Source of the DNA: Xanthomonas sp. GPE 39
Lineage (GTDB): Bacteria; Pseudomonadota; Gammaproteobacteria; Xanthomonadales; Xanthomonadaceae
Reading direction: 5' to 3'
Assembly (NCBI RefSeq): GCF_000963005.1
Contig: NZ_JZHZ01000007.1
Span: 431,227 to 495,226 of the forward strand
Length of the DNA stretch: 64,000 nt
The notes beneath the pieces are model-generated. The model was not told the DNA's origin, searched no databases, and saw only the letters and a program-made list of their open reading frames with translations. How positions within the stretch are numbered: position 1 is the stretch's first letter; each line of letters starts with the position of its first letter. Of this stretch, positions 25,877 through 52,741 are shown one piece after another. The position numbers were made by a program, and so were the translations under genes.

Positions 25877-26010
25877 TCAGCAACAGTCCGCTCGAGTCGA
25901 AGCGGTGTGGGGAGTCAGAGCGGAGAAAGCCTGCAAGCCTGACTGATCGACCGGAGTGCCATTGGTGGTGATGGCGGTTGCCGGCGGATGATTGATGGGG
26001 ACGCCAGAAA
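25877..26010 (-). pseudogene. 3' remnant of the asparagine-synthetase-like gene
   Basis: The minus-strand frame reads 'PPATAITTNGTPVDQSGLQAF', clearly matching the C-terminus of the intact gene at 27883 ('PPVAAITTDGTPVDQAALQAF'). No upstream part of the gene is present. It marks the ancestral junction between that gene and the 110-residue gene before the plus-strand cassettes were inserted. Confidence 0.8.
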
Positions 26011-26071
26011 TCCAATCAGCTTCCCGTTTGCCTGATATCTTTACAGTTCGATCAACGAACTCGATACCAAC

Positions 26072-26758
26072 ATGCTCAAGCAGGAATCTCTCGTTTCGCT
26101 GTTCTCGTTGCTGCACGAAATGACGATTTTTAAACCTTTCAAACCGGTGTATCGATCACAAGTATGGTTGCATCGGTCAGTAATTTCCATTTACTTTATA
26201 AATCTTGCATTTTCGATAATTGCAATGATTGCGTTATTGCTTCAATATATATTTCCTTCGGAAATCCATCTATTATTCTTTAAGGCTTCATTGGTTCCGC
26301 TAATTATCTCTAGTGCGGCCCACTTTGTGACTATGGGATTGAACGAAATTGTCTATTACTGGACCCGTCGTAAGCAGGCGTTGCCAGTGCAATTTTTGCA
26401 CCTAAAACTCGATATGTTGGCCTATGCAGGTTTCCTGGCCCAGCTTCAATGCTATGAAAAATCCGCATTGGAATACGCATTGTTACAGTACCGGAGTCAC
26501 TTTTATAGTTTGGAGGGCCGTTTTGATTTTATTATTGGAGATCTTCGAAAGAAAGGTGTGTTTCCCGCGTTCTTGGCTTTATTTATAGCATTTTCAATGG
26601 TGGTAAAGGAAAATAATATCATGCACTTTTTTGTGCCTTTTGTTGTGGTCGGATGTTCTTATATTGTGGGTCTTTACACCCGTGTCCGTCAGGAACGCGC
26701 CCAGCAGGTGATGGATTTGCTCAATTACGCCATTCTTCATGCCGATGTGATGACGTAA
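26072..26758 (+). CDS. AT-rich membrane protein, copy A
   Basis: 228 residues, four predicted TM segments (around 30-55, 62-82, 160-178, 184-203) with a central cytoplasmic part. It shares the first 14 residues ('MLKQESLVSLFSLL') and a conserved block 'GDLRKKGVFPAF' with copy B. It is read against the late operon and is much AT-richer than its neighbours, typical of a phage moron expressed during lysogeny. Superinfection exclusion or abortive infection is a guess. No good Shine-Dalgarno is visible. Confidence 0.7.
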   Translation: MLKQESLVSLFSLLHEMTIFKPFKPVYRSQVWLHRSVISIYFINLAFSIIAMIALLLQYIFPSEIHLLFFKASLVPLIISSAAHFVTMGLNEIVYYWTRRKQALPVQFLHLKLDMLAYAGFLAQLQCYEKSALEYALLQYRSHFYSLEGRFDFIIGDLRKKGVFPAFLALFIAFSMVVKENNIMHFFVPFVVVGCSYIVGLYTRVRQERAQQVMDLLNYAILHADVMT

Positions 26759-26788
26759 AAAGGCTGAAATGATGATCGAGGTCGAAAA

Positions 26789-26866
26789 CTAGAGATCGAC
26801 GCTGTATTTGAATTCAGTTAATTCGTTGCCATGGCGGGTGGTGGTTTTCGTCACGCTGAAAGGCAC
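26789..26866 (-). pseudogene. 5' remnant of the 110-residue gene (copy 2)
   Basis: The ribosome site GGAGGAATC and GTG start are kept, then 25 residues ('PFSVTKTTTRHGNEL...') before a TAG stop. The rest is missing. Confidence 0.8.
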
Positions 26867-26987
26867 GGCGATTCCTCCTTTTGACGAATGAGTTCAATAA
26901 ATAGGTAGTTAGATAAATAGGTGGTTAGAGGTGGTAGCTCCGTTTATCTGATACCTTGATAGCTCAATCAACGAACTCGATACCAAC

Positions 26988-27683
26988 ATGCTCAAGCAAG
27001 AATCTCTCGTTTCGCTGTTCTCTTTGTTGCAGGAAATGACAGTTGTCAATCGTGATAAAGAGGTGTTCAGGTTGCCGGTGTGGATACGTAGACTGGAAAG
27101 AATTACAGGATATTTTTATTTTGGCGTTGCGATAGTATTATTTTTTTTCGCCTTGCTTCAATGCGCGTTTCATTCGTCGACAATATTGTTTTTCATTGAT
27201 TTGTTTTATATTGTATTGTGCTTTTCTGGAATGGCCTGCCTAATTGTATTAATATTGGGCCAAGGTGTATTTTTCTGGATTAATCGAAAAAATGGGTTTT
27301 CCGTTCAATTTTTACGTCTAAAGACTGACATGTTGGGCGATGCAGATTACCTGGATCGGCTTCAATACTATGACAAGAAATGGTTGGGATACGGCCTGCT
27401 GCAATACAAGAGACATTTCAATAATTTAGATGGTCGTTTTAGTTTTTTTGTCGGAGATTTGCGAAAAATCGGTATATTCCCTGCGTTTATAGTTTTGGTG
27501 GCGACTGCATCAACATTAATAAAAAATAATGATTCAAAGTACTTCTGGGCGCCTTTGATATTTGCTGCAATTTTTTATTTGGCTGGAATCTTTGTTCGTG
27601 CTCGTCAAGAGCGTACACAGCAGGTGATTGATCTGCTCGATTACGCCATTTTTCATTCCGAGATGGTGACGGAGCAAAAATGA
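26988..27683 (+). CDS. AT-rich membrane protein, copy B
   Basis: 231 residues, paralogue of copy A with four TM segments. The central block 'QFLRLKTDMLGDADYLDRLQ' and 'GDLRKIGIFPAF' is shared, while the first TM pair has diverged. The upstream 30 bp are also shared with copy A (CAACGAACTCGATACCAAC before the ATG), so promoter and gene were duplicated as a unit. Divergence in the TM parts with conservation of ends suggests diversifying paralogues rather than a recent duplicate. Confidence 0.7.
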   Translation: MLKQESLVSLFSLLQEMTVVNRDKEVFRLPVWIRRLERITGYFYFGVAIVLFFFALLQCAFHSSTILFFIDLFYIVLCFSGMACLIVLILGQGVFFWINRKNGFSVQFLRLKTDMLGDADYLDRLQYYDKKWLGYGLLQYKRHFNNLDGRFSFFVGDLRKIGIFPAFIVLVATASTLIKNNDSKYFWAPLIFAAIFYLAGIFVRARQERTQQVIDLLDYAIFHSEMVTEQK

Positions 27684-27784
27684 TTTTTGACGATCAAGGT
27701 TGCTAACCCGAGATCGATGCTGTCTTTGAATCCTTGCACTTCGCCGACCTGTTGGGCGTTGGTTTTCGTAACGATGAAAGGCAA
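27653..27784 (-). pseudogene. 5' remnant of the 110-residue gene (copy 3)
   Basis: Begins at TTG 27784 behind the same GGAGGAATC site. 'PFIVTKTNAQQVGEVQGFKDSIDL' aligns with the intact gene for about 24 residues, then runs into unrelated sequence and stops after 43 residues, overlapping the 3' end of membrane gene B. Confidence 0.75.
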
Positions 27785-27882
27785 GGCGATTCCTCCTTCG
27801 GAACGATGGGTTCGGAAATGGAGAGCGGGTGGCGGGGTGTGGAGGTGACTCAGCAACGGTCCGCGCGAGTCGAAGTGCTGGC

Positions 27883-28899
27883 TCAGTCAGAACGAACGAA
27901 CGCCTGCAAAGCGGCCTGATCGACCGGAGTGCCATCGGTGGTGATAGCAGCCACCGGTGGATACTTGAACACCTTGCACAGCGAGCCGATCTTCACCTTG
28001 GTCAGATAGCTCTGATCGCCGGTGAAGGCTACGATGTAGCGCTTGGCCGGCATTTTGTAGGTGTCGATGCTGGCGCCAAGTTTGTCGGCCGGATGGGTGA
28101 TGCTCCAATGCTGGAATGCCGGCGTGTCGAAGAAATGCTGGATCTTGCCGAGCAGCGCGCGATAGTCCGAACCTGGCGGCTCATAGAGCAGTTGCCGGTA
28201 CTTCACGTGCTGCCATTTCTGGGAGAAGTTCCACCACCACAGGAAATCCTGTGCGCTGACCAGAGGGTAGGGAGCTTCGTCGGCGATTGGTGCGTAGCGT
28301 CGATAGAGCGCGGTACCGGTCTGCTCGTTTGCGGCGATGCTGCCGAACAGACGAGGCAGGACCAGGGCATGCGGCTGTGCCAGGCTTTCAAACCCCAATC
28401 GTCGCGTGGCCTCCAACATCAAATCGGACCCAAACAACTGGTCACCGAGCTCTCCGGTGACCACTACTTCGTCGTACAGCCCGACTTTGCCGACGGTGCG
28501 TTCGACGGACAGCCTGCCGGCGATCTGGGCTTGGTAGAACCCTGGATTCTCGGCGATGCTGTGGCTCGACAGGTACACAGTGAGCCGGTCGAGTTCGTTG
28601 CCAGGCAAGGCTTTGAGCAAGGCGACTAGCGCCACGGTCGAATCGATCCCACCAGACCACATGACGTGCAGTCGCGCATGTGCATCGAGCAGCGCGCGCG
28701 CGCGTGCATCACAGCAGTGCGCGAAAGAGATCTGCTGTGTTGTTGTCGCATCGGGTATCGGACAGCAGGCGTCAAAGCGCAGAAGATCGGGGTTACATGC
28801 CAGGCGGGAAGTTGTGAGGACGCCTCGGATGACCTGGCGTAAACCGCTCGCGAACGGATTGCACTGCACCAGATTGCGGGCGACCAGTAAGTCAGTCAT
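27883..28899 (-). CDS. Asparagine-synthetase-like PP-loop ATPase without glutaminase domain
   Basis: 338 residues. The ATP pyrophosphatase loop 'WSGGIDSTVALV' (SGGIDS at 82-87) and second signature 'TGELGDQLFGSD' (148-159) are those of the asparagine synthetase C-terminal domain, where the Asp of the second motif binds Mg/ATP. The class II glutaminase domain and its N-terminal Cys are absent, as in lasso-peptide cyclases, beta-lactam synthetase and sugar amidating enzymes. It would adenylate a carboxylate and form an amide or ring. It starts inside the stop of the 197-residue gene. The substrate is unknown; a virion protein is possible. Confidence 0.75.
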   Translation of the reverse strand: MTDLLVARNLVQCNPFASGLRQVIRGVLTTSRLACNPDLLRFDACCPIPDATTTQQISFAHCCDARARALLDAHARLHVMWSGGIDSTVALVALLKALPGNELDRLTVYLSSHSIAENPGFYQAQIAGRLSVERTVGKVGLYDEVVVTGELGDQLFGSDLMLEATRRLGFESLAQPHALVLPRLFGSIAANEQTGTALYRRYAPIADEAPYPLVSAQDFLWWWNFSQKWQHVKYRQLLYEPPGSDYRALLGKIQHFFDTPAFQHWSITHPADKLGASIDTYKMPAKRYIVAFTGDQSYLTKVKIGSLCKVFKYPPVAAITTDGTPVDQAALQAFVRSD

Positions 28900-45837: not shown

Positions 45838-47119
45838 CGTCTTGTTCGTTGATCTTGCTGGGTTCGGCGTTGTCGTCATCCGGCGGCGCTTGTGTCGGTG
45901 TGGGCTGCTGATTGGGGCCGGTGGCGCCCATGTTGAGCGCCACCAAGGGTTCGTCCAATCCAGGCAGCGGTGCGTAGTTCTCGGCCATGCGGACCTCATT
46001 GCGGGTAAGCGCTCCCATGCTGACCATCGCCGAGTAGTAAGTCGCTCGGCTGTTGGCGTCACCGCGCATCAAGGCCGCGAAATCGAATTCGCAGTCCATG
46101 TCTTCTTCATCGAGCATTAGGTCGGCGCGGATGCTGGCTTCCCAGCGCTCGGCCCAGGGGCGCATGGTGTAGCGGACGAACTCGATTGACTGCTGTTCGA
46201 TGTTGTTATTGGTCGCACGATCGAGGTCCGCAATCATGTGTGGCGGAACACGGAACAAGCGCGCAATGTCGGTGACCTGAAATTTGCGTAGCTCGAGGAA
46301 CTGCGCTTCCTTGTTGGTCACGCCGACCTCGTGGTACTTCATGCCTGCTTCCAGGACCAGCACCTTGCCCCGGTTCATCGCGCCTTGCGCGTGCTGGTAA
46401 GACTCTCGGAAGTTGTCGCGGGCAGGTTTGTCCTTGAAGGTGCCGGGGTATTCGATCCAGCCGCCCGTGGGCTTGGCATCGTTGGCAAAAAAGCGCGAGC
46501 CGTACTCCTGGGCGGTGAGCGCCAGGCCAACACTCTCGCGCGCCATCTCGATAGGCGACAGGCCGATCATGCCGTCGGAGGACAGCCCCCGCAGATGCCA
46601 GACAGCGCCGCGCGGCAGAATGGTCTGATTGCCGAAGCGGTCGATGATGCGGTAGCTGTATTCATCGGCTTGGGTGTTGGAGAGCACCAGGCTGACCCGA
46701 TCCGGGTGGATTGGGATCAGATCGGTGATCTGGCCGGCTGCATCGCTGAGGATGCGACAGAACGCATTGCCGCGCAGCGCCAGGTGGCCCATGAGCATTT
46801 CGCGCCACTCGAATGGGTTCTGATACCGATTCGGGCGGACGTGGAATAGCCGGTACAACCAGTGATCGGTCACCTCCACCTTGCCACGGCTGTGTGGGCT
46901 GTACAGGATGAAAGGCAAGGAGGCCATGCTTTCGGCCAGGATGCGCACGCAGGCATAGACGGCTGACAGACGCAGCGCCGACTCGCTCGAAATCCGTGCG
47001 CCACTGGTGGTGCGCAGAGTGACCGGCTCGAACCAGAACGATCCCCATGCGCTGCGGTCGTTCGCATCAGCGCGCGCGCGGCCGAAATGGCCGAGGAAAT
47101 CGGCAAGGCGTCCCATCAC
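45821..47119 (-). CDS. Portal protein, HK97 family
   Basis: 432 residues. 'SALRLSAVYACVRILAESMA' and 'FRVPPHMIADLDRATNNNIE' are diagnostic. Forms the dodecameric DNA entry ring. The C-terminus is a Pro/Asp-rich acidic tail. Overlaps terL by 4 bases. Confidence 0.95.
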   Translation of the reverse strand: MMGRLADFLGHFGRARADANDRSAWGSFWFEPVTLRTTSGARISSESALRLSAVYACVRILAESMASLPFILYSPHSRGKVEVTDHWLYRLFHVRPNRYQNPFEWREMLMGHLALRGNAFCRILSDAAGQITDLIPIHPDRVSLVLSNTQADEYSYRIIDRFGNQTILPRGAVWHLRGLSSDGMIGLSPIEMARESVGLALTAQEYGSRFFANDAKPTGGWIEYPGTFKDKPARDNFRESYQHAQGAMNRGKVLVLEAGMKYHEVGVTNKEAQFLELRKFQVTDIARLFRVPPHMIADLDRATNNNIEQQSIEFVRYTMRPWAERWEASIRADLMLDEEDMDCEFDFAALMRGDANSRATYYSAMVSMGALTRNEVRMAENYAPLPGLDEPLVALNMGATGPNQQPTPTQAPPDDDNAEPSKINEQDDDDET

Positions 47120-48858
47120 AACACCATCAATTGGTAGCTGCTGTCGATGACGATGCCGTCGCCAGGTTTGATCGCGCGCGAGAACGCCATGATCAGGGCG
47201 ACGATGCCGTCGATCTTGTTCTCTGGTCGCTCCTTACGTGGATAGATGTTGTCCTTCGCGTCCAAGTGCGCGACGACATTGCTGGCCATCCACGCCAGCA
47301 CCGGGTCGCCGTCATGGACGAGTTTTTTCTGCAGCACCAGCGCCTCCAGGGTTTTCATCGGTTCTGAGAAATTGAGTACCGTTGGGCGCACTTCGATCAT
47401 CGGCAGACCTTCGGCCAGCATCCGCGTGGACAACTGCGTGGCCTGGAACGGATCGAAGGCCACGGCCTGGATTTCAAAACGCGAGGCCATCTGGATCAGG
47501 TCCGCCTCGATCCAACTAAAATCGATCACATTGCCCACGGTGACCGTCAGCCGCCCGCTACGCATCCAGCCGGGATATTGGCTGTTGCCGGCGGCCTGGA
47601 CCGTGTCCTCGGGCAGGTAATACTTGCCGAAGACCGCGTAGGCATCGGCGATGTCCGGGTGTTGGAACACCACCATGAGCGCGGCGATGTCTGTCTTGCT
47701 GGCCAGATCCAGGCCGATCCAACAGGGTTGCCCATCGAAGTCATCCAGGTCCAGGGTGGAGTCAGCACATGCATCCCAGGCGCGCATGTCCATCCACGCG
47801 GTGTGGGCGTTGACCCATTCGTTGAGGTGCTTGGTCTTGAAGTTGTTGATGGCGCTGGGTAGTTGCATGGCCTTGGCCTGCAGCGGTCCCAACACCTCCG
47901 GACGCACCGAGATGCCCCAGTTCGGATTGGCCTTGATCAGCGCCTGCTCGGTGTCCCAGCTATCGCCCTCATCCAGACCGTAGATGATCCCGAACTGGGT
48001 ATCGTCCTGGATCACACCATCGAGCAGCTTGGTAACGAAGGTCCTCACCTCATAGCAGATGCCAGCGCGGTTGCTGCCGGCGGTGGTGATCACCCACAGC
48101 AGCGAGTTGTCACGTTTACCCATGCCGGTTTCGACGACGTCGTAGACCGTGCGCGTCTTGTGGGCATGCAGTTCGTCGATGCAGCCGAAGTGGATGTTGA
48201 GCCCATCCAGCGTCGAGCCCTCGGCTGACAACGCTTCGAACTTGGAGCCGCTGCCCAGCACATGCATGTTGTGTGCGCCAACGTTCACCGCGAAGCGACT
48301 GCGGAACCCGGCGCTGCGTCGCGCCATGGTCTGTGCGTCGCCGAACACGATGCGCGCTTGGTCCCGCGTGGTGGCCAGGCTGTACACCTCGGCACCGCCC
48401 TCGCCATCGGCCGTGAGCATGTACAGGCTCACCGCCGAGGACAGGGTGGATTTGGCATTGCCGCGTGGCACCTCGATGTAGGAGCGACGAAACCGTCGCT
48501 TGCCATCGGGCCGCACCCAACCAAATGCGGTAGAGAGGATGAACACCTGCCACGGTTCCAACTGGATCGATGCGCCGGCCAGTGGACCTTTGACGTGCGG
48601 TAGCCGCTCGATGAAGGCGCACAGGTTGTCGGCCGGCAAAAAGGTGCGACCCTGCTTGTCCTTGAGCTTCGGATTGAAGCGGTAGGGACTGGCTTTGCCG
48701 GTGTAGCGCGCCAGGTCGTCCAGTTGGCGTTGGCAGGCGCGTTGCACCCAGCGGCAGGCGAGGATGTCGCCGGCGACCACGGCTTCGGCATAGCGATAGG
48801 CGAGCGTGGCGTAATGTGAGGTTGCTATCGCGCTACCTAGCCGGCGATGTCTGCCCAA
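47116..48858 (-). CDS. Terminase large subunit
   Basis: 580 residues. ATPase with Walker A-like 'VPRGNAKSTLSS' and acidic 'IDELHAH'; nuclease domain begins at 'WIGLDLASKTDIAAL' (metal-binding Asp). Terminase_1/HK97-type. Packages and cuts DNA. Overlaps the terS end by 22 bases. Confidence 0.95.
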   Translation of the reverse strand: MGRHRRLGSAIATSHYATLAYRYAEAVVAGDILACRWVQRACQRQLDDLARYTGKASPYRFNPKLKDKQGRTFLPADNLCAFIERLPHVKGPLAGASIQLEPWQVFILSTAFGWVRPDGKRRFRRSYIEVPRGNAKSTLSSAVSLYMLTADGEGGAEVYSLATTRDQARIVFGDAQTMARRSAGFRSRFAVNVGAHNMHVLGSGSKFEALSAEGSTLDGLNIHFGCIDELHAHKTRTVYDVVETGMGKRDNSLLWVITTAGSNRAGICYEVRTFVTKLLDGVIQDDTQFGIIYGLDEGDSWDTEQALIKANPNWGISVRPEVLGPLQAKAMQLPSAINNFKTKHLNEWVNAHTAWMDMRAWDACADSTLDLDDFDGQPCWIGLDLASKTDIAALMVVFQHPDIADAYAVFGKYYLPEDTVQAAGNSQYPGWMRSGRLTVTVGNVIDFSWIEADLIQMASRFEIQAVAFDPFQATQLSTRMLAEGLPMIEVRPTVLNFSEPMKTLEALVLQKKLVHDGDPVLAWMASNVVAHLDAKDNIYPRKERPENKIDGIVALIMAFSRAIKPGDGIVIDSSYQLMVL

Positions 48859-49298
48859 GGGTCCAGGGCGTCTTCAGCGGTTTCCATGGGCAAGCTGACA
48901 CGCGAGCGCGATGCCGGCGTAAAGCCCATCTCGGTTGCCGCCTTGGTCATGATCTGCGCCTGCTTGTTGGCGATGGACAGATACGGTGACTGCATCGGCA
49001 CGCCGGTGTTGGGTGCCTTCAATAGCAATCCGCTCTTGTTGATGCCGGTCTGTGCCTTGCGATACAGATCAGCGGCACAGGCCCACACTTCCAGCACCGA
49101 CATGTCCAGGCGCTTGAGCAGATGCGGTGGCGCGCATTCCAGCGCGTAGCGCCAGGCTGACTTTGCGCCCTCGCTCATGTAGTCGGGTGGCTCTGTCAGA
49201 TCACCTTGTGGCTTGGGTTCGCCCAGGTTGGTGCGGCACTTTTGCAGCGTGCCTTTGATCTGCTTGACGGTGGTGGGAAGACGCTTGCGTCCGGCCAT
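48837..49298 (-). CDS. Terminase small subunit, P27 family
   Basis: 153 residues. 'GRKRLPTTVKQIKGTLQKCR' opening and 'LDMSVLEVWACAADLYRKAQ' are typical of P27-family small terminases. Recognises the packaging site, which in such phages usually lies at or just upstream of this gene, i.e. where the CRISPR array sits. Confidence 0.92.
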   Translation of the reverse strand: MAGRKRLPTTVKQIKGTLQKCRTNLGEPKPQGDLTEPPDYMSEGAKSAWRYALECAPPHLLKRLDMSVLEVWACAADLYRKAQTGINKSGLLLKAPNTGVPMQSPYLSIANKQAQIMTKAATEMGFTPASRSRVSLPMETAEDALDPWADIAG

Positions 49299-49438
49299 AT
49301 TGATTCCTTGCAGGGGGGACCCCCCCCTGTTTCATTTTGCACGCGAGAAAAATTGATGGAGCGAGCGGTCTTTTGCGATTGCATCGCAAGGATTTGACCC
49401 CCCTACCCAGCATCGGGTCCGATTGATGCCCCGAACAT

Positions 49439-49706
49439 TGCATGAGCTGCCTATGCGGCAGTGAACAAGACCGAACTGGCCGTTGGAGACCAGGTGAATT
49501 TCTGAGCTGCCTATACGGCAGTGAACGATGATCAAGGACGGGCGCGAAGGGCGTAAGTTTTCTGAGCTGCCTACACGGCAGTGAACCGCGGACGGTGTTC
49601 GTTGTCCCGCCGCAAGAATTTCTGAGCTGCCTACACGGCAGTGAACTCGCCAGCGTGTTCACGTTGGCCCATACGCGATTTCTGAGCTGCCTACACGGCA
49701 GTGGAT
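49439..49706 (-). CRISPR. Orphan type I-F mini-CRISPR array, 5 repeats and 4 spacers
   Basis: Repeats of 28 bp start at 49439, 49499, 49559, 49619 and 49679, exactly 60 bp apart, so all four spacers are 32 bp. Read on the minus strand, the repeat begins GTTCACTGCCGTGTAGGCAG and ends CTCAGAAA, the canonical type I-F (Ypest) repeat with CTGCC/GGCAG hairpin cut by Csy4/Cas6f. Three inner repeats differ at one or two bases. The 49439 repeat is degenerate at its 3' end (trailer side), and the 49679 repeat differs in its first bases. Spacer 32 and period 60 are standard for I-F. No cas gene is in the window, so host Csy1-4 would be needed. The array reads in the direction of the late genes, between HNH and terS. 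Confidence 0.95.
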
Positions 49707-49756
49707 CGAGCATGCCATGACTGTTGTCATTGTGCATCTGTCCAGATTGTTTTTCA

Positions 49757-50122
49757 TCAAACACCTTCGCGTCCCTGGCGCGATTCCTGCGCCGTCTTGA
49801 GTACGTGACAGCGATGACAGATCGCCTGGCAGTTGTTTGGATGATCGGTGCCGCCCTGCGACTTTGGGACGATGTGGTCCACCGCCACGGCTGGCGTCAA
49901 GCGTCCTGACTGTTTGCATGGCTGGCACAGTCCTTGATCGCGCTGCATGACGACGGCGCGCAGTTTCTGCCACTTTGCGCCGTAGCCACGTTGATGTGCA
50001 TTGCGTCGGTCTTGGTACCACCCCGACTTGTCACGTTGATGGTCGGCGCAGTAGCCAGAACCATCCGAAACCAGCTTGCCGCAACCAGGGTGGCGGCATG
50101 GCGTGGGGGCTTTGCAGGGCAT
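49757..50122 (-). CDS. HNH endonuclease
   Basis: 121 residues from ATG 50122. An N-terminal Cys/His knuckle ('CRHPGCGKLVSDGSGYCADH') precedes an HNH core with 'CQPCKQSGR', 'VDHIVPKSQGGTDHPNNCQA' and 'CHRCH'. HNH proteins next to terminase genes assist in DNA cleavage during packaging in many HK97-type phages. The CRISPR array begins 50 bp after its stop. Confidence 0.92.
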   Translation of the reverse strand: MPCKAPTPCRHPGCGKLVSDGSGYCADHQRDKSGWYQDRRNAHQRGYGAKWQKLRAVVMQRDQGLCQPCKQSGRLTPAVAVDHIVPKSQGGTDHPNNCQAICHRCHVLKTAQESRQGREGV

Positions 50123-50188
50123 CGGAGCCTGTTCAAGAAGGAAACAAAAAAATAAGCAAAAAATGTGCAAAAACCACTTGGCTTTTTA

Positions 50189-50215
50189 GGTGATTGGAGC
50201 GTTCATGCGATCACC
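50189..50215 (+). promoter_or_regulatory. Promoter/operator of DUF3489 gene
   Basis: GGTGAT...ATCACC inverted repeat overlapping a possible -10, with TTGGCT 6 bases upstream as -35. The same arrangement stands before the paralogue at 50818-50844, with the arms conserved, which supports function. Confidence 0.5.
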
Positions 50216-50240
50216 AACCAACACGCCGAGGACAATTCAA

Positions 50241-50705
50241 ATGACCACCCAGCTCACACCCACCCAGCACGCCATCCTGACCCACGCCCATCAGCATACC
50301 GAGGGCAAGATCACTTGGGTTCCCGACAATCTCAACGGTGGTGCGCGCAAAAAAGTGCTCGAATCACTGTTCAATCGCGCATTTATCAAGCCAAACCGCA
50401 ATGCTTGGATCATCAGCGCCCAGGGCTACAAAGCGTTGGGCGTGTCGCGCAAGGCGCCAGTCAGTGCCAAGGCGCCAGAGGCCGTCCAAGCCAAACCGCG
50501 CACTCGCGAAAACAGCAAACAGGCTCAGGTGATTGCAATGCTCAAGCGCCATGAAGGCGCCACCATCGCGCAGATTTGCGAGGCAACCGGCTGGCAGCCA
50601 CATACGGTGCGCGGCACTTTTGCCGGAGCATTCAAGAAAAGGCTGGGTTTGAGCATTATCTCGGATAAAGCCAATGGTGGTGAGCGTGTCTACCGCGTCG
50701 AATGA
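50241..50705 (+). CDS. DUF3489 protein
   Basis: 154 residues from ATG 50241 behind GAGGA. N-terminal winged-helix-like part ('LTPTQHAILTHAHQHTEGKI', 'LFNRAFIKPNRNAWIISAQG') and C-terminal DUF3489 ('MLKRHEGATIAQICEATGWQ', 'HTVRGTFAGAFKKRLGL'), a predicted DNA-binding module often seen in phages. Transcribed against the phage operons. Probably a regulator. Confidence 0.8.
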   Translation: MTTQLTPTQHAILTHAHQHTEGKITWVPDNLNGGARKKVLESLFNRAFIKPNRNAWIISAQGYKALGVSRKAPVSAKAPEAVQAKPRTRENSKQAQVIAMLKRHEGATIAQICEATGWQPHTVRGTFAGAFKKRLGLSIISDKANGGERVYRVE

Positions 50706-51274: not shown

Positions 51275-52531
51275 TTACGCCATCCCTGGCTGCTCGGCCT
51301 CCAGCGTTGAACCAAATTTCACACCATCGCTGGCGCGTATTGCTGCTTGCCCGGTGTAGTCCTGCCAGCGGCGCACGATCACGTCGACATACTTCGGATC
51401 AAGTTCGATCAAGCGCGCGCGCCGGCCGGACTTTTCGCAGGCAATGAGCGTGGAGCCGGAGCCGCCGAACGGATCGAGCACGATGTCCTTGGTCTTGCTG
51501 CTGTTGCGCACGGCGCGCTCGACCAATTCGACCGGCTTCATGGTCGGATGCAGGTCGTTCTTATGCGGCTTCTTGATCTGCCAGACATCGCCCTGGTCGC
51601 GAGCGCCACACCAAAAGTGATCGATGCCCTCGCGCCAGCCGTACAGGATGGGCTCGTACTGGCGCTGGTAGTCCGCACGGCCCATCGTGAAGGTGTTCTT
51701 GGCCCAGATGATGAAGGTCGACCAGTGACCACCGGCTGCACGGAAGGCCGATTGCAGCGTATCGAGTTCGCTGGAACTCATGGCGATGTACACCGCGCCC
51801 TTGGTGCATCCCAGGATGTTCATGCATGCTTCGGTCAGGAAGCCGCCAAAGCCTTCGCCCAAGTTATCGTTCAGGATCGGGCGGTCCTTGCTGCGCATCC
51901 TGTCCTTGGCGGTGTTGGCGTAATTCACGTTGTAGGGCGGATCGGTGAAGGCCATGTCGGGCAATTCGTCGCCGAGCAGCAGGGTGTAGTCGTCGGCCTT
52001 GGTGGCGTCGCCGCACAGCAGCCTGTGCTCGCCCAACAGCCACACGTCGCCTGTTTTGGAGATGGGCGTTGCGGGTACCTCCGGCACATTGTCGTCGTCG
52101 GTGAGCCCGTCCTTGGTGGCGTCGTCACCGGCGATCAGCGCTTCCCATTCTTCCGGGGAGAAGCCGGTCAGGCCGAGATCGAAGCCGGCGTCTTGCAATT
52201 CGGACAATTCGATGCCGAGCAGGCTGTCATCCCAGGCGGCGTTCTCGCCGATCTTGTTGTCGGCCAGGATCAGCGCGCGGCGTTGCGTGTCGCTCAAGTG
52301 ATCCAACGGGACGACCGGCACCTCGGCCATGCCAAGCTGACGAGCCGCCAGCAAACGACCGTGTCCGGCGATCACATTGTTCTGGCCGTCGATCAGGATC
52401 GGCGCACCCCAGCCGAACTCGCGAATGCTGGCGGCGATCTGCGCGACCTGAGCCTGTGAATGCTGTTTGGCATTGCGGGCATAGGGGATCAGCGAATCGA
52501 CCGGGCGGTAGTGGATCTGCAGTGCGCTCAT
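51275..52531 (-). CDS. ParB-like/DNA methyltransferase fusion
   Basis: 418 residues from ATG 52531. Residues 5-95 form a ParB/Srx-like domain ('IAGHGRLLAARQLGM'). Residues 160-400 form an amino-methyltransferase with catalytic 'DPPYNV' (197-202) and SAM motif 'DPFGGSGST' (353-361), so beta-class N6-adenine or N4-cytosine. It may protect phage DNA from host restriction or regulate expression. An intrinsic terminator directly upstream separates it from the earlier genes. Confidence 0.9.
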   Translation of the reverse strand: MSALQIHYRPVDSLIPYARNAKQHSQAQVAQIAASIREFGWGAPILIDGQNNVIAGHGRLLAARQLGMAEVPVVPLDHLSDTQRRALILADNKIGENAAWDDSLLGIELSELQDAGFDLGLTGFSPEEWEALIAGDDATKDGLTDDDNVPEVPATPISKTGDVWLLGEHRLLCGDATKADDYTLLLGDELPDMAFTDPPYNVNYANTAKDRMRSKDRPILNDNLGEGFGGFLTEACMNILGCTKGAVYIAMSSSELDTLQSAFRAAGGHWSTFIIWAKNTFTMGRADYQRQYEPILYGWREGIDHFWCGARDQGDVWQIKKPHKNDLHPTMKPVELVERAVRNSSKTKDIVLDPFGGSGSTLIACEKSGRRARLIELDPKYVDVIVRRWQDYTGQAAIRASDGVKFGSTLEAEQPGMA

Positions 52532-52545
52532 CGGGGCCTGGAAAT

Positions 52546-52582
52546 GAAAAAACCCGCCATGAGTCGTCCTCATCGGCGGGTT
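52546..52582 (-). terminator. Terminator upstream of methyltransferase gene
   Basis: Minus-strand stem AACCCGCC...GGCGGGTT, extended by ATGAG/CTCAT, followed by TTTTTTCATTT. It ends the early transcript or acts as an attenuator. Confidence 0.75.
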
Positions 52583-52741
52583 GATGGTGTTGGCCAGTTG
52601 TGTCGCCATGCTGTGTGCAGTGGCTGACAGGTCTGTCCAGAAGGTAGCGGAAATACTACCCCCGGACGGCCTGTTGTGTTGCACGCCGCGATGACGTCAA
52701 AACAGACAGGTATGGCAAAGCGTGGACAATCAGCGCAAGCA

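What the first reader, a model, noticed from the sequence alone, without database searches (positions are those of the whole stretch)
49439..49706. Phage-borne orphan type I-F mini-CRISPR array between terS and HNH gene
Five 28-bp repeats at an exact 60-bp period give four 32-bp spacers. The repeat has the canonical I-F hairpin, with a degenerate trailer repeat on the side expected if transcribed on the minus strand. No cas genes are in this prophage, and the array lies inside the late operon. Complete I-F systems are known in Vibrio phage ICP1, and mini-arrays in archaeal viruses, but a cas-less I-F array parked at the packaging locus of a tailed prophage would be a distinct arrangement. It could borrow host Csy proteins to attack rival phages or block superinfection by relatives. 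By eye none of the four spacers matches elsewhere in this window, so it does not obviously target its own phage.
Basis: partly seen in the sequence, partly recalled or inferred. Interest (0 to 1): 0.95.

Follow-up and report, generated by a model that had tools for sequence, protein, structure and literature searches.

The report
Phage-carried CRISPR guides against plasmids
A prophage in a close relative of the sugarcane pathogen Xanthomonas albilineans carries a small CRISPR array, with no CRISPR enzyme genes found beside it, and three of its four guide sequences match conjugative or mobilizable plasmids, so the virus would likely borrow its host's enzymes to keep rival plasmids out.

Summary
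The array is real: five type I-F repeats and four 32-nt spacers between hnh and terS on the late strand. The host chromosome has a complete I-F cas set and a 54-spacer array with the same repeat. Four allelic prophage arrays (window, two in X. albilineans CFBP2523, one IMG/VR contig) sit at the same HNH-terS site with the same kind of degenerate end repeats but no shared spacer; sister phages have an empty site. Three of four window spacers, and 10 of 17 over the four arrays, match plasmids with at most 5 mismatches and a CC PAM; host main arrays give 7 of 86 on the same, partly hit-chosen, plasmids. In 50,697 phage records the best spacer hit is 23 of 25 bases at E=3. Best reading: an exchangeable guide cassette beside a cos-like region that would use host Csy proteins against plasmids. 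Expression and interference are untested. Cas-less arrays beside an HNH gene in X. albilineans prophages were already in print (PMC10269729); the rows I saw of my searches show no report of plasmid targets. A new variant of the known phage-borne mini-array.

The parts
49679..49706 (-). repeat 1 (leader-side; changed at positions 1 and 3 only, a part predicted to enter no crRNA)
49647..49678 (-). spacer Pw_1; 32/32 match with CC PAM in X. albilineans plasmid III (NC_017555), in a short ORF just upstream of virB2, and in a X. fragariae plasmid
49619..49646 (-). repeat 2 (canonical)
49587..49618 (-). spacer Pw_2; no match found
49559..49586 (-). repeat 3 (canonical)
49527..49558 (-). spacer Pw_3; 31/32 match with CC PAM in a gene of plasmid pEMT1 that by position next to traW corresponds to traU, and 29/32 in an annotated traU of a X. 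campestris plasmid
49499..49526 (-). repeat 4 (one loop change)
49467..49498 (-). spacer Pw_4; 30/32 match with CC PAM in the MobF relaxase gene of a X. translucens plasmid, 28/32 in mobF of X. albilineans plasmid II
49439..49466 (-). repeat 5 (trailer; two loop changes and three changes in the last 8 nt, stem intact)
49707..49732 (-). conserved 26-nt leader-side element shared by all four prophage arrays, unlike the host I-F leader; role unknown
49411..49438 (-). trailer stretch shared by the array-bearing phages, absent from the empty site
49324..49410 (-). cos-like region between array and terS, shared with array-less sisters; the linear record of Marinobacter phage AS1 begins in the corresponding place (inferred cos)
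49757..50170 (-). HNH endonuclease (PHROG 144, PF01844); a likely start codon is the ATG at 50122
48837..49298 (-). terminase small subunit (PHROG 83)
47116..48858 (-). terminase large subunit (PHROG 9)

Best explanation
This prophage carries a type I-F CRISPR array with no cas genes found beside it, whose RNA is likely made with the late packaging operon and predicted to be cut and loaded by the host's own Csy proteins, and because three of its four guides match conjugative or mobilizable plasmids beside the correct CC motif it would make the cell destroy those plasmids. Shown: the array, the cognate host cas set, the plasmid matches and their PAMs, the allelic arrays with different spacers in sister prophages, the empty site in array-less sisters. 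Inferred: transcription, processing by Cas6f (Csy4), loading, plasmid interference, and the benefit to the phage (a lysogen kept free of competing plasmids and of whatever defence or anti-CRISPR genes they bring). Inferred too: spacers enter by recombination with other I-F arrays, since both end repeats are fixed, the inner repeats do not carry the A found at position 1 of the first repeat, and the leader is not the host's.
For: Host: Cas1f, Cas3f, Csy1, Csy3 and Csy4 over NCBIfam cut-offs (the Csy2 protein drew no NCBIfam hit), Csy2 over the Pfam cut-off, 54 spacers in the main array with the same repeat. Targets: Pw_1 32/32, Pw_3 31/32, Pw_4 30/32, all with CC PAM and no mismatch at seed positions 1-5, 7, 8. 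Over four arrays 10 of 17 prophage spacers have a plasmid match with at most 5 mismatches and CC PAM, against 7 of 86 host main-array spacers and 0 of 5 purD-orphan spacers (13 stretches of 12 plasmids, most chosen from prophage-spacer hits; Fisher p 1e-5; one of the six purD-orphan spacers was not in the set). On the three X. albilineans plasmids alone: 6 of 17 against 2 of 86 (p 2e-4). Of 37 matches with at most 6 mismatches, repeat copies on one plasmid included, 36 have CC; 107 spacers read backwards give none with at most 6, one at 7 and one at 8. Guides: in the window, C29 and C4 arrays 5 of 336 crRNA-forming repeat positions are changed, all in the loop, against 13 of 84 in the outward parts (changes shared by descent, so fewer events). 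Turnover: 4, 6, 2 and 5 spacers, none shared; P40_1 and P47_2 hit the same plasmid gene on opposite strands. The leader-proximal host spacer H_1 lies 38 bp from the Pw_1 protospacer, same strand, same plasmid, as primed adaptation would give.
Against: No expression data for this array; no sigma-70-like promoter was found at 49200-50300, so guides may be made only during lytic growth, when excluding plasmids helps less. PMC10810201 (one section and passages read) reports atypical processing from two short arrays of strain CFBP7063; whether they are homologous to this one is not known. Pw_2 and 6 other prophage spacers have no plasmid match on the panel. Three sister-array guides (P39_1, P39_5, P39_6) have one seed mismatch to their best plasmid match. 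Host arrays also target some of these plasmids (H_1, H_6, H_42, H_54; T_20, T_28, T_29), so plasmid targeting is enriched, not exclusive. One of the 37 matches (T_17, a host spacer) lacks CC. The plasmid panel is partly selected, and plasmid and phage collections need not be equally deep for Xanthomonas.
Confidence: 0.66

Rival explanations
1. Superinfection exclusion of rival phages: the guides would target related or competing phages.
For: Best-known role of virus-borne mini-arrays (PMC6858448 passages, PMC11656645 section). P39_6 of a sister array is 27/32 like a gene of Pseudomonas phage Lebethron; 25 bases of Pw_4 match mycobacteriophages 23 of 25 at E=3 (PAM not checked).
Against: IMG/VR gave only the prophage's own record for the four window spacers; no spacer matches the window, C29 or 40 kb of C4 with at most 7 mismatches outside the arrays; the Lebethron match lacks CC, while P39_6 is 30/32 with CC in plasmid pEMT1.
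Confidence: 0.12
2. RNA anti-CRISPR or sponge: the repeats mimic host repeats and tie up Csy proteins so that the phage escapes host immunity.
For: Solitary I-F repeats in prophages do this (RacrIF1, PMC10651486, passages read). Phage crRNAs would in any case compete with host crRNAs.
Against: Not a solitary repeat: 3, 5 and 7 repeats at 60-61-bp period with 32-33-nt spacers in the three intact arrays; a decoy needs no PAM-correct plasmid spacers, yet 10 of 17 have them; the host main array has no spacer with at most 7 mismatches in this prophage.
Confidence: 0.08
3. Passenger DNA: a piece of chromosomal array caught by an ancestral phage, kept without function and varying by neutral recombination.
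For: Orphan I-F arrays without the host leader also sit beside purD and differ between two genomes, and the CFBP2523 one has 0 of 56 crRNA-forming positions changed, so clean repeats alone do not prove use. The window array has the same repeat as the host array.
Against: The G000 purD orphan carries flank, loop, stem and handle changes in crRNA-forming parts (7 of 112) while the three intact prophage arrays carry loop changes only (5 of 336); kept at one site in four phages whose flanks have diverged; plasmid share far above the main arrays.
Confidence: 0.14

Closest known systems
Virus-borne mini-CRISPR arrays (SPV1/SPV2 of Sulfolobales, Medvedeva et al. 2019, PMC6858448; phage mini-arrays of Faure et al. 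2019, as cited there and in PMC7099407)
   Same: cas-less, repeats of the host type, same place in related viruses with different spacers; phage versions lack the host leader and are thought to gain spacers by recombination (PMC7099407, PMC6858448, passages read).
   Different: Those have 1-2 spacers, mostly against related viruses (PMC11656645, one section read); one SPV1 spacer matched an integrated plasmid (PMC6858448). Here 2-6 spacers, with plasmid matches for 10 of 17, beside a cos-like region.
CRISPR3/CRISPR4 of Brazilian X. albilineans strains (PMC10269729, passages read)
   Same: cas-less, repeats identical to the I-F array CRISPR2, HNH gene upstream; CRISPR3 within prophages. Very probably the same element (inference; sequences not compared).
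   Different: That paper calls CRISPR4 an incomplete locus and links unique spacers to phage infections of the isolates; the passages I read give no targets and no benefit to the phage. [quoted passage not shown]
I-F1 arrays of X. albilineans CFBP7063 (PMC10810201, one section and passages read)
   Same: X. albilineans, same cas type; five I-F1 arrays; self-targeting spacers point mainly to prophages or to one of three plasmids; crRNAs sequenced.
   Different: In what I read the arrays are not described as phage-borne; the supplement could not be opened here.
RacrIF1 and other solitary repeat units (PMC10651486, passages read)
   Same: I-F repeat carried by a prophage and bound by host Cas6f/Cas7f.
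   Different: One repeat, no guide; inhibits immunity rather than redirecting it.
Vibrio phage ICP1 I-F CRISPR-Cas (in PMC11656645, one section read)
   Same: I-F array carried by a phage against another mobile element.
   Different: ICP1 carries its own cas genes and an adaptation module.

Membership tests
type I-F CRISPR array | 28-nt repeat of the I-F class with hairpin | tested here: met
   RF01317 on all five, three above the gathering score; folds
type I-F CRISPR array | 32-nt spacers, 60-bp period | tested here: met
type I-F CRISPR array | cognate cas genes in the cell | tested here: met
type I-F CRISPR array | CC PAM at protospacers | tested here: met
   36 of 37 matches with at most 6 mismatches, host and prophage spacers together; the best matches of Pw_1, Pw_3 and Pw_4 all have CC
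type I-F CRISPR array | leader like that of the host array, for adaptation | tested here: not met
   22 of 60 identical to the host leader; shuffled mean 14.6, maximum 27 of 2000 shuffles
virus-borne mini-CRISPR array | in a virus genome without cas genes, host-type repeats | tested here: met
   41 ORFs scanned, not every ORF
virus-borne mini-CRISPR array | one or two spacers | tested here: not met
   4 here; 6, 2 and 5 in sister arrays
virus-borne mini-CRISPR array | spacers target related viruses | tested here: not met
   none found for the window spacers beyond chance-level hits; plasmid matches instead
solitary repeat unit / Racr | a single repeat with no array | tested here: not met
   five repeats
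phage-encoded complete CRISPR-Cas (ICP1 type) | cas genes in the phage | tested here: not met
   Csy2 only at the chromosomal locus
any functional array | mature crRNAs are made | not testable with these tools
   needs small RNA sequencing

The most novel reading that the evidence does not exclude
A lineage of temperate Xanthomonas phages keeps, beside its cos site, an exchangeable magazine of I-F guides aimed at conjugative plasmids: refilled by recombination instead of adaptation, loaded into host Csy, and priming the host's own array (its newest spacer sits 38 bp from the prophage guide's target). Phages that vaccinate their hosts against plasmids.
Probability: 0.35. Interest if true: 0.86.

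Novelty: new variant of a known kind. Interest (0 to 1): 0.74.

Why it matters
Phage-borne mini-arrays are described as weapons between related viruses. Here four allelic prophage arrays are enriched for guides that match conjugative or mobilizable plasmids, with correct PAMs. If they work, temperate phages use host CRISPR to control which plasmids enter crop-associated Xanthomonas. The neighbouring newest host spacer makes a further question testable: whether phage crRNAs can prime host adaptation.

Tried and rejected
Phage protospacers: INPHARED with the four natural arrays, IMG/VR with exact wobble patterns for each window spacer, 198 family genomes for Pw_1 and 20 Xanthomonas genomes for Pw_2, Pw_3 and Pw_4: nothing beyond the prophage itself except weak hits. 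Lebethron (5 mismatches, no CC), B3 (9 mismatches) and ZL12 (6 mismatches, no CC) were rejected, and the Zymomonas record holds I-F repeats, no spacer match; the mycobacteriophage hit was left at E=3.

KfrA in Xanthomonas genomes as the target of P40_1/P47_2: no match in 15 loci from 20 genomes, nor by back-translated pattern (which found only the spacer itself or nothing); the match came later on a plasmid gene for a DNA-binding protein.

My first plasmid search listed only 30 of 53 records and hid the spacer hits; one search listed all 53. Until then I believed there were no targets (first notebook entry).

A host-leader match and a sigma-70 promoter were looked for and not found. Anti-CRISPR in the prophage: 10 small ORFs against NCBIfam gave nothing; no dedicated Acr library was available.

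Full report
What is there. Window 49439-49706 holds five 28-bp repeats and four 32-nt spacers at an exact 60-bp period, read on the minus strand. All repeats match Rfam RF01317, three over its gathering score. The array lies between an HNH gene (49757-50170) and terS (48837-49298), followed by terL and portal on the same strand; head, tail sheath, tape measure and baseplate genes follow. Csy2 occurs once in the genome, far away.

The host. The window's genome (G000, 3,534,477 bases in 8 contigs, of which C1 holds 3,517,237) is a Xanthomonas; at a 2-kb stretch around purD it is 89-92% identical to G001 and 81-89% to the other 18 genomes of the genus held. Two contigs of G001 have the lengths and arrays of X. 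albilineans CFBP2523 contigs; that this is the type strain is recalled. G000 has Cas1f, Cas3f, Csy1, Csy3, Csy4 and Csy2 beside a 54-spacer I-F array with the same repeat. The 7 small contigs sum to 17,240 bases, so no separate plasmid of 25 kb or more is assembled.

Sister phages. A search of 20 Xanthomonas genomes, G000 included, with the 1-kb locus and scans of GTDB genomes and IMG/VR with the HNH protein gave the same site in two prophages of CFBP2523 (L039 = contig C29, 6 spacers, P39; L040 = contig C4, 2 spacers, P40) and in IMG/VR contig L047 (5 spacers, P47, the block duplicated in tandem, with a stretch of about 250 bases inserted after the first repeat); IMG/VR L046 carries the window's own array. 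Eight close array-less relatives (L041, L048-L054; three distinct versions in the stretch compared) run from HNH straight into the cos-like region. So the array is an insertion just behind HNH.

Framed array. Repeat 1 begins with A instead of G in all four arrays; the last repeat ends in TGCA or AGCA; inner repeats are canonical apart from loop changes and, in L047, one repeat also changed at position 4. If spacers had been added at the leader end, the copied repeat would carry the A; it does not (inference). The leader-side 60 nt agree at 47-54 positions among the four prophage arrays but at 17-23 with the two host leaders. The conserved element occurs nowhere else in 20 Xanthomonas genomes at up to 3 mismatches. 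Among 108 spacers (17 prophage, 54 and 32 host main, 5 of 6 purD-orphan) none is shared; the only overlapping pairs are P40_1/P47_2 and two host spacers. PMC10269729 says that in Brazilian strains some spacers are shared. Recombination with other I-F arrays, proposed in general for phage mini-arrays (PMC7099407, PMC6858448, passages), fits best.

Guides look usable. If Cas6f cuts after position 20 (recalled, I-F), the changed outward parts of the end repeats would enter no crRNA. In the window, C29 and C4 arrays, 5 of 336 crRNA-forming positions are changed, all loop, against 13 of 84 outward ones. L047 is left out of this count because its first repeat is cut off; its figures are 5 of 168 and 5 of 28. 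Changes are shared by descent, so the p-value overstates the case, and one purD orphan is equally clean (0 of 56).

Targets. Phage collections gave only chance-level or PAM-less hits (sister arrays). The full plasmid list (53 records) shows Pw_1 in X. albilineans plasmid III and five X. fragariae plasmids, Pw_3 in two Paraburkholderia plasmids and two Xanthomonas traU genes, Pw_4 in five Xanthomonas mobF genes. Sister arrays behave alike: P39_1 in many Xanthomonas plasmids (60 of 140 records listed), P40_2 in kfrA of IncP plasmids (60 of 109 listed), P47_1 identical in two Paraburkholderia plasmids and P47_2 in X. albilineans plasmid III (all 41 listed). On the fetched plasmids: Pw_1 0, Pw_3 1, Pw_4 2 mismatches, CC PAM, clean seed. 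36 of 37 matches with at most 6 mismatches have CC, copies of repeated plasmid elements included, and the backwards control has none. Of 64 mismatches in 27 distinct pairs, 18 fall on every-sixth positions, expected share 16%.

Control. With at most 5 mismatches and CC: prophage arrays 10 of 17, host main arrays 4 of 54 and 3 of 32, purD orphans 0 of 5. The panel is biased towards prophage-spacer hits; on X. albilineans plasmids I-III alone (I and II fetched by accession, not from a hit list; 1.4 kb of them missing) it is 6 of 17 against 2 of 86. The host main array also hits Xanthomonas plasmids widely through H_6 (60 of 126 records listed, the rest unseen), so enrichment, not exclusivity, is the claim. 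PMC3542200 (passages read) says that CRISPR spacers of strain GPE PC73 match phage-related chromosomal sequences.

A sign of use. Host spacer H_1, leader-proximal and so by the usual rule the newest, is 32/32 in the same ORF of plasmid III as Pw_1, same strand, 38 bp away. A random place within 38 bp on a 27-kb circle has a chance of about 0.3% (my arithmetic, made after seeing it). Primed adaptation from a prophage guide would give this; so would the reverse history.

Place. In Marinobacter phage AS1 the linear record ends 19 nt behind HNH and starts 69 nt before terS, which corresponds to about 49361-49374 here. If that is cos, the array is the extreme right end of packaged DNA. This is inference.

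Literature. PMC10269729 reports the cas-less arrays; PMC10810201 reports I-F1 crRNAs and two short arrays with atypical processing; PMC6858448, PMC7099407 and PMC11656645 describe mini-arrays against related viruses. My searches show, in the rows listed (not all matching papers), no title or abstract start on phage-borne arrays against plasmids; the library is open-licence only, and Faure et al. 2019 was not seen.

Noticed in passing
L012:9982-10240 (G000:C1:389981-390239) and L076:1494-1641: An orphan I-F mini-array beside purD without the host leader, with different spacers in G000 and in X. albilineans CFBP2523; its repeats carry stem and handle changes in G000.
   Followed up: partly
L015 (G000:C1:3377883-3377914): Leader-proximal host spacer H_1 matches X. 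albilineans plasmid III 32/32, 38 bp from the prophage guide's target on the same strand.
   Followed up: partly
L047:4416-5950: Array block with part of HNH duplicated in tandem (929 bp apart), and, by eye, a small ORF with a signal-peptide-like start inserted behind the first repeat.
   Followed up: no
L015, host spacers H_29 and H_47: Two host main-array spacers overlap by 21 identical bases, offset by 11, as if the host array took up the same invader twice.
   Followed up: no
L024 (G008:C1:371794) and L025 (G009:C1:290899): Short I-F repeat arrays, the first decayed, in two other Xanthomonas genomes.
   Followed up: partly
window 26001-28000: A 43% GC stretch in a region otherwise mostly above 57% GC, with two plus-strand ORFs (26072-26758, 26988-27683) without PHROGs, Pfam or PADLOC hits.
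   Followed up: partly
window 51275-52684: ORF matching both ParB-like nuclease and DNA methyltransferase families (PHROG 620, 498) near the HNH gene.
   Followed up: no
L151, L152 (NZ_CP026110.1), L159, L154: The P47_1 target is an element present seven times in plasmid pEMT1; P39_1 likewise hits two places of X. albilineans plasmid II and three of a X. translucens plasmid.
   Followed up: no
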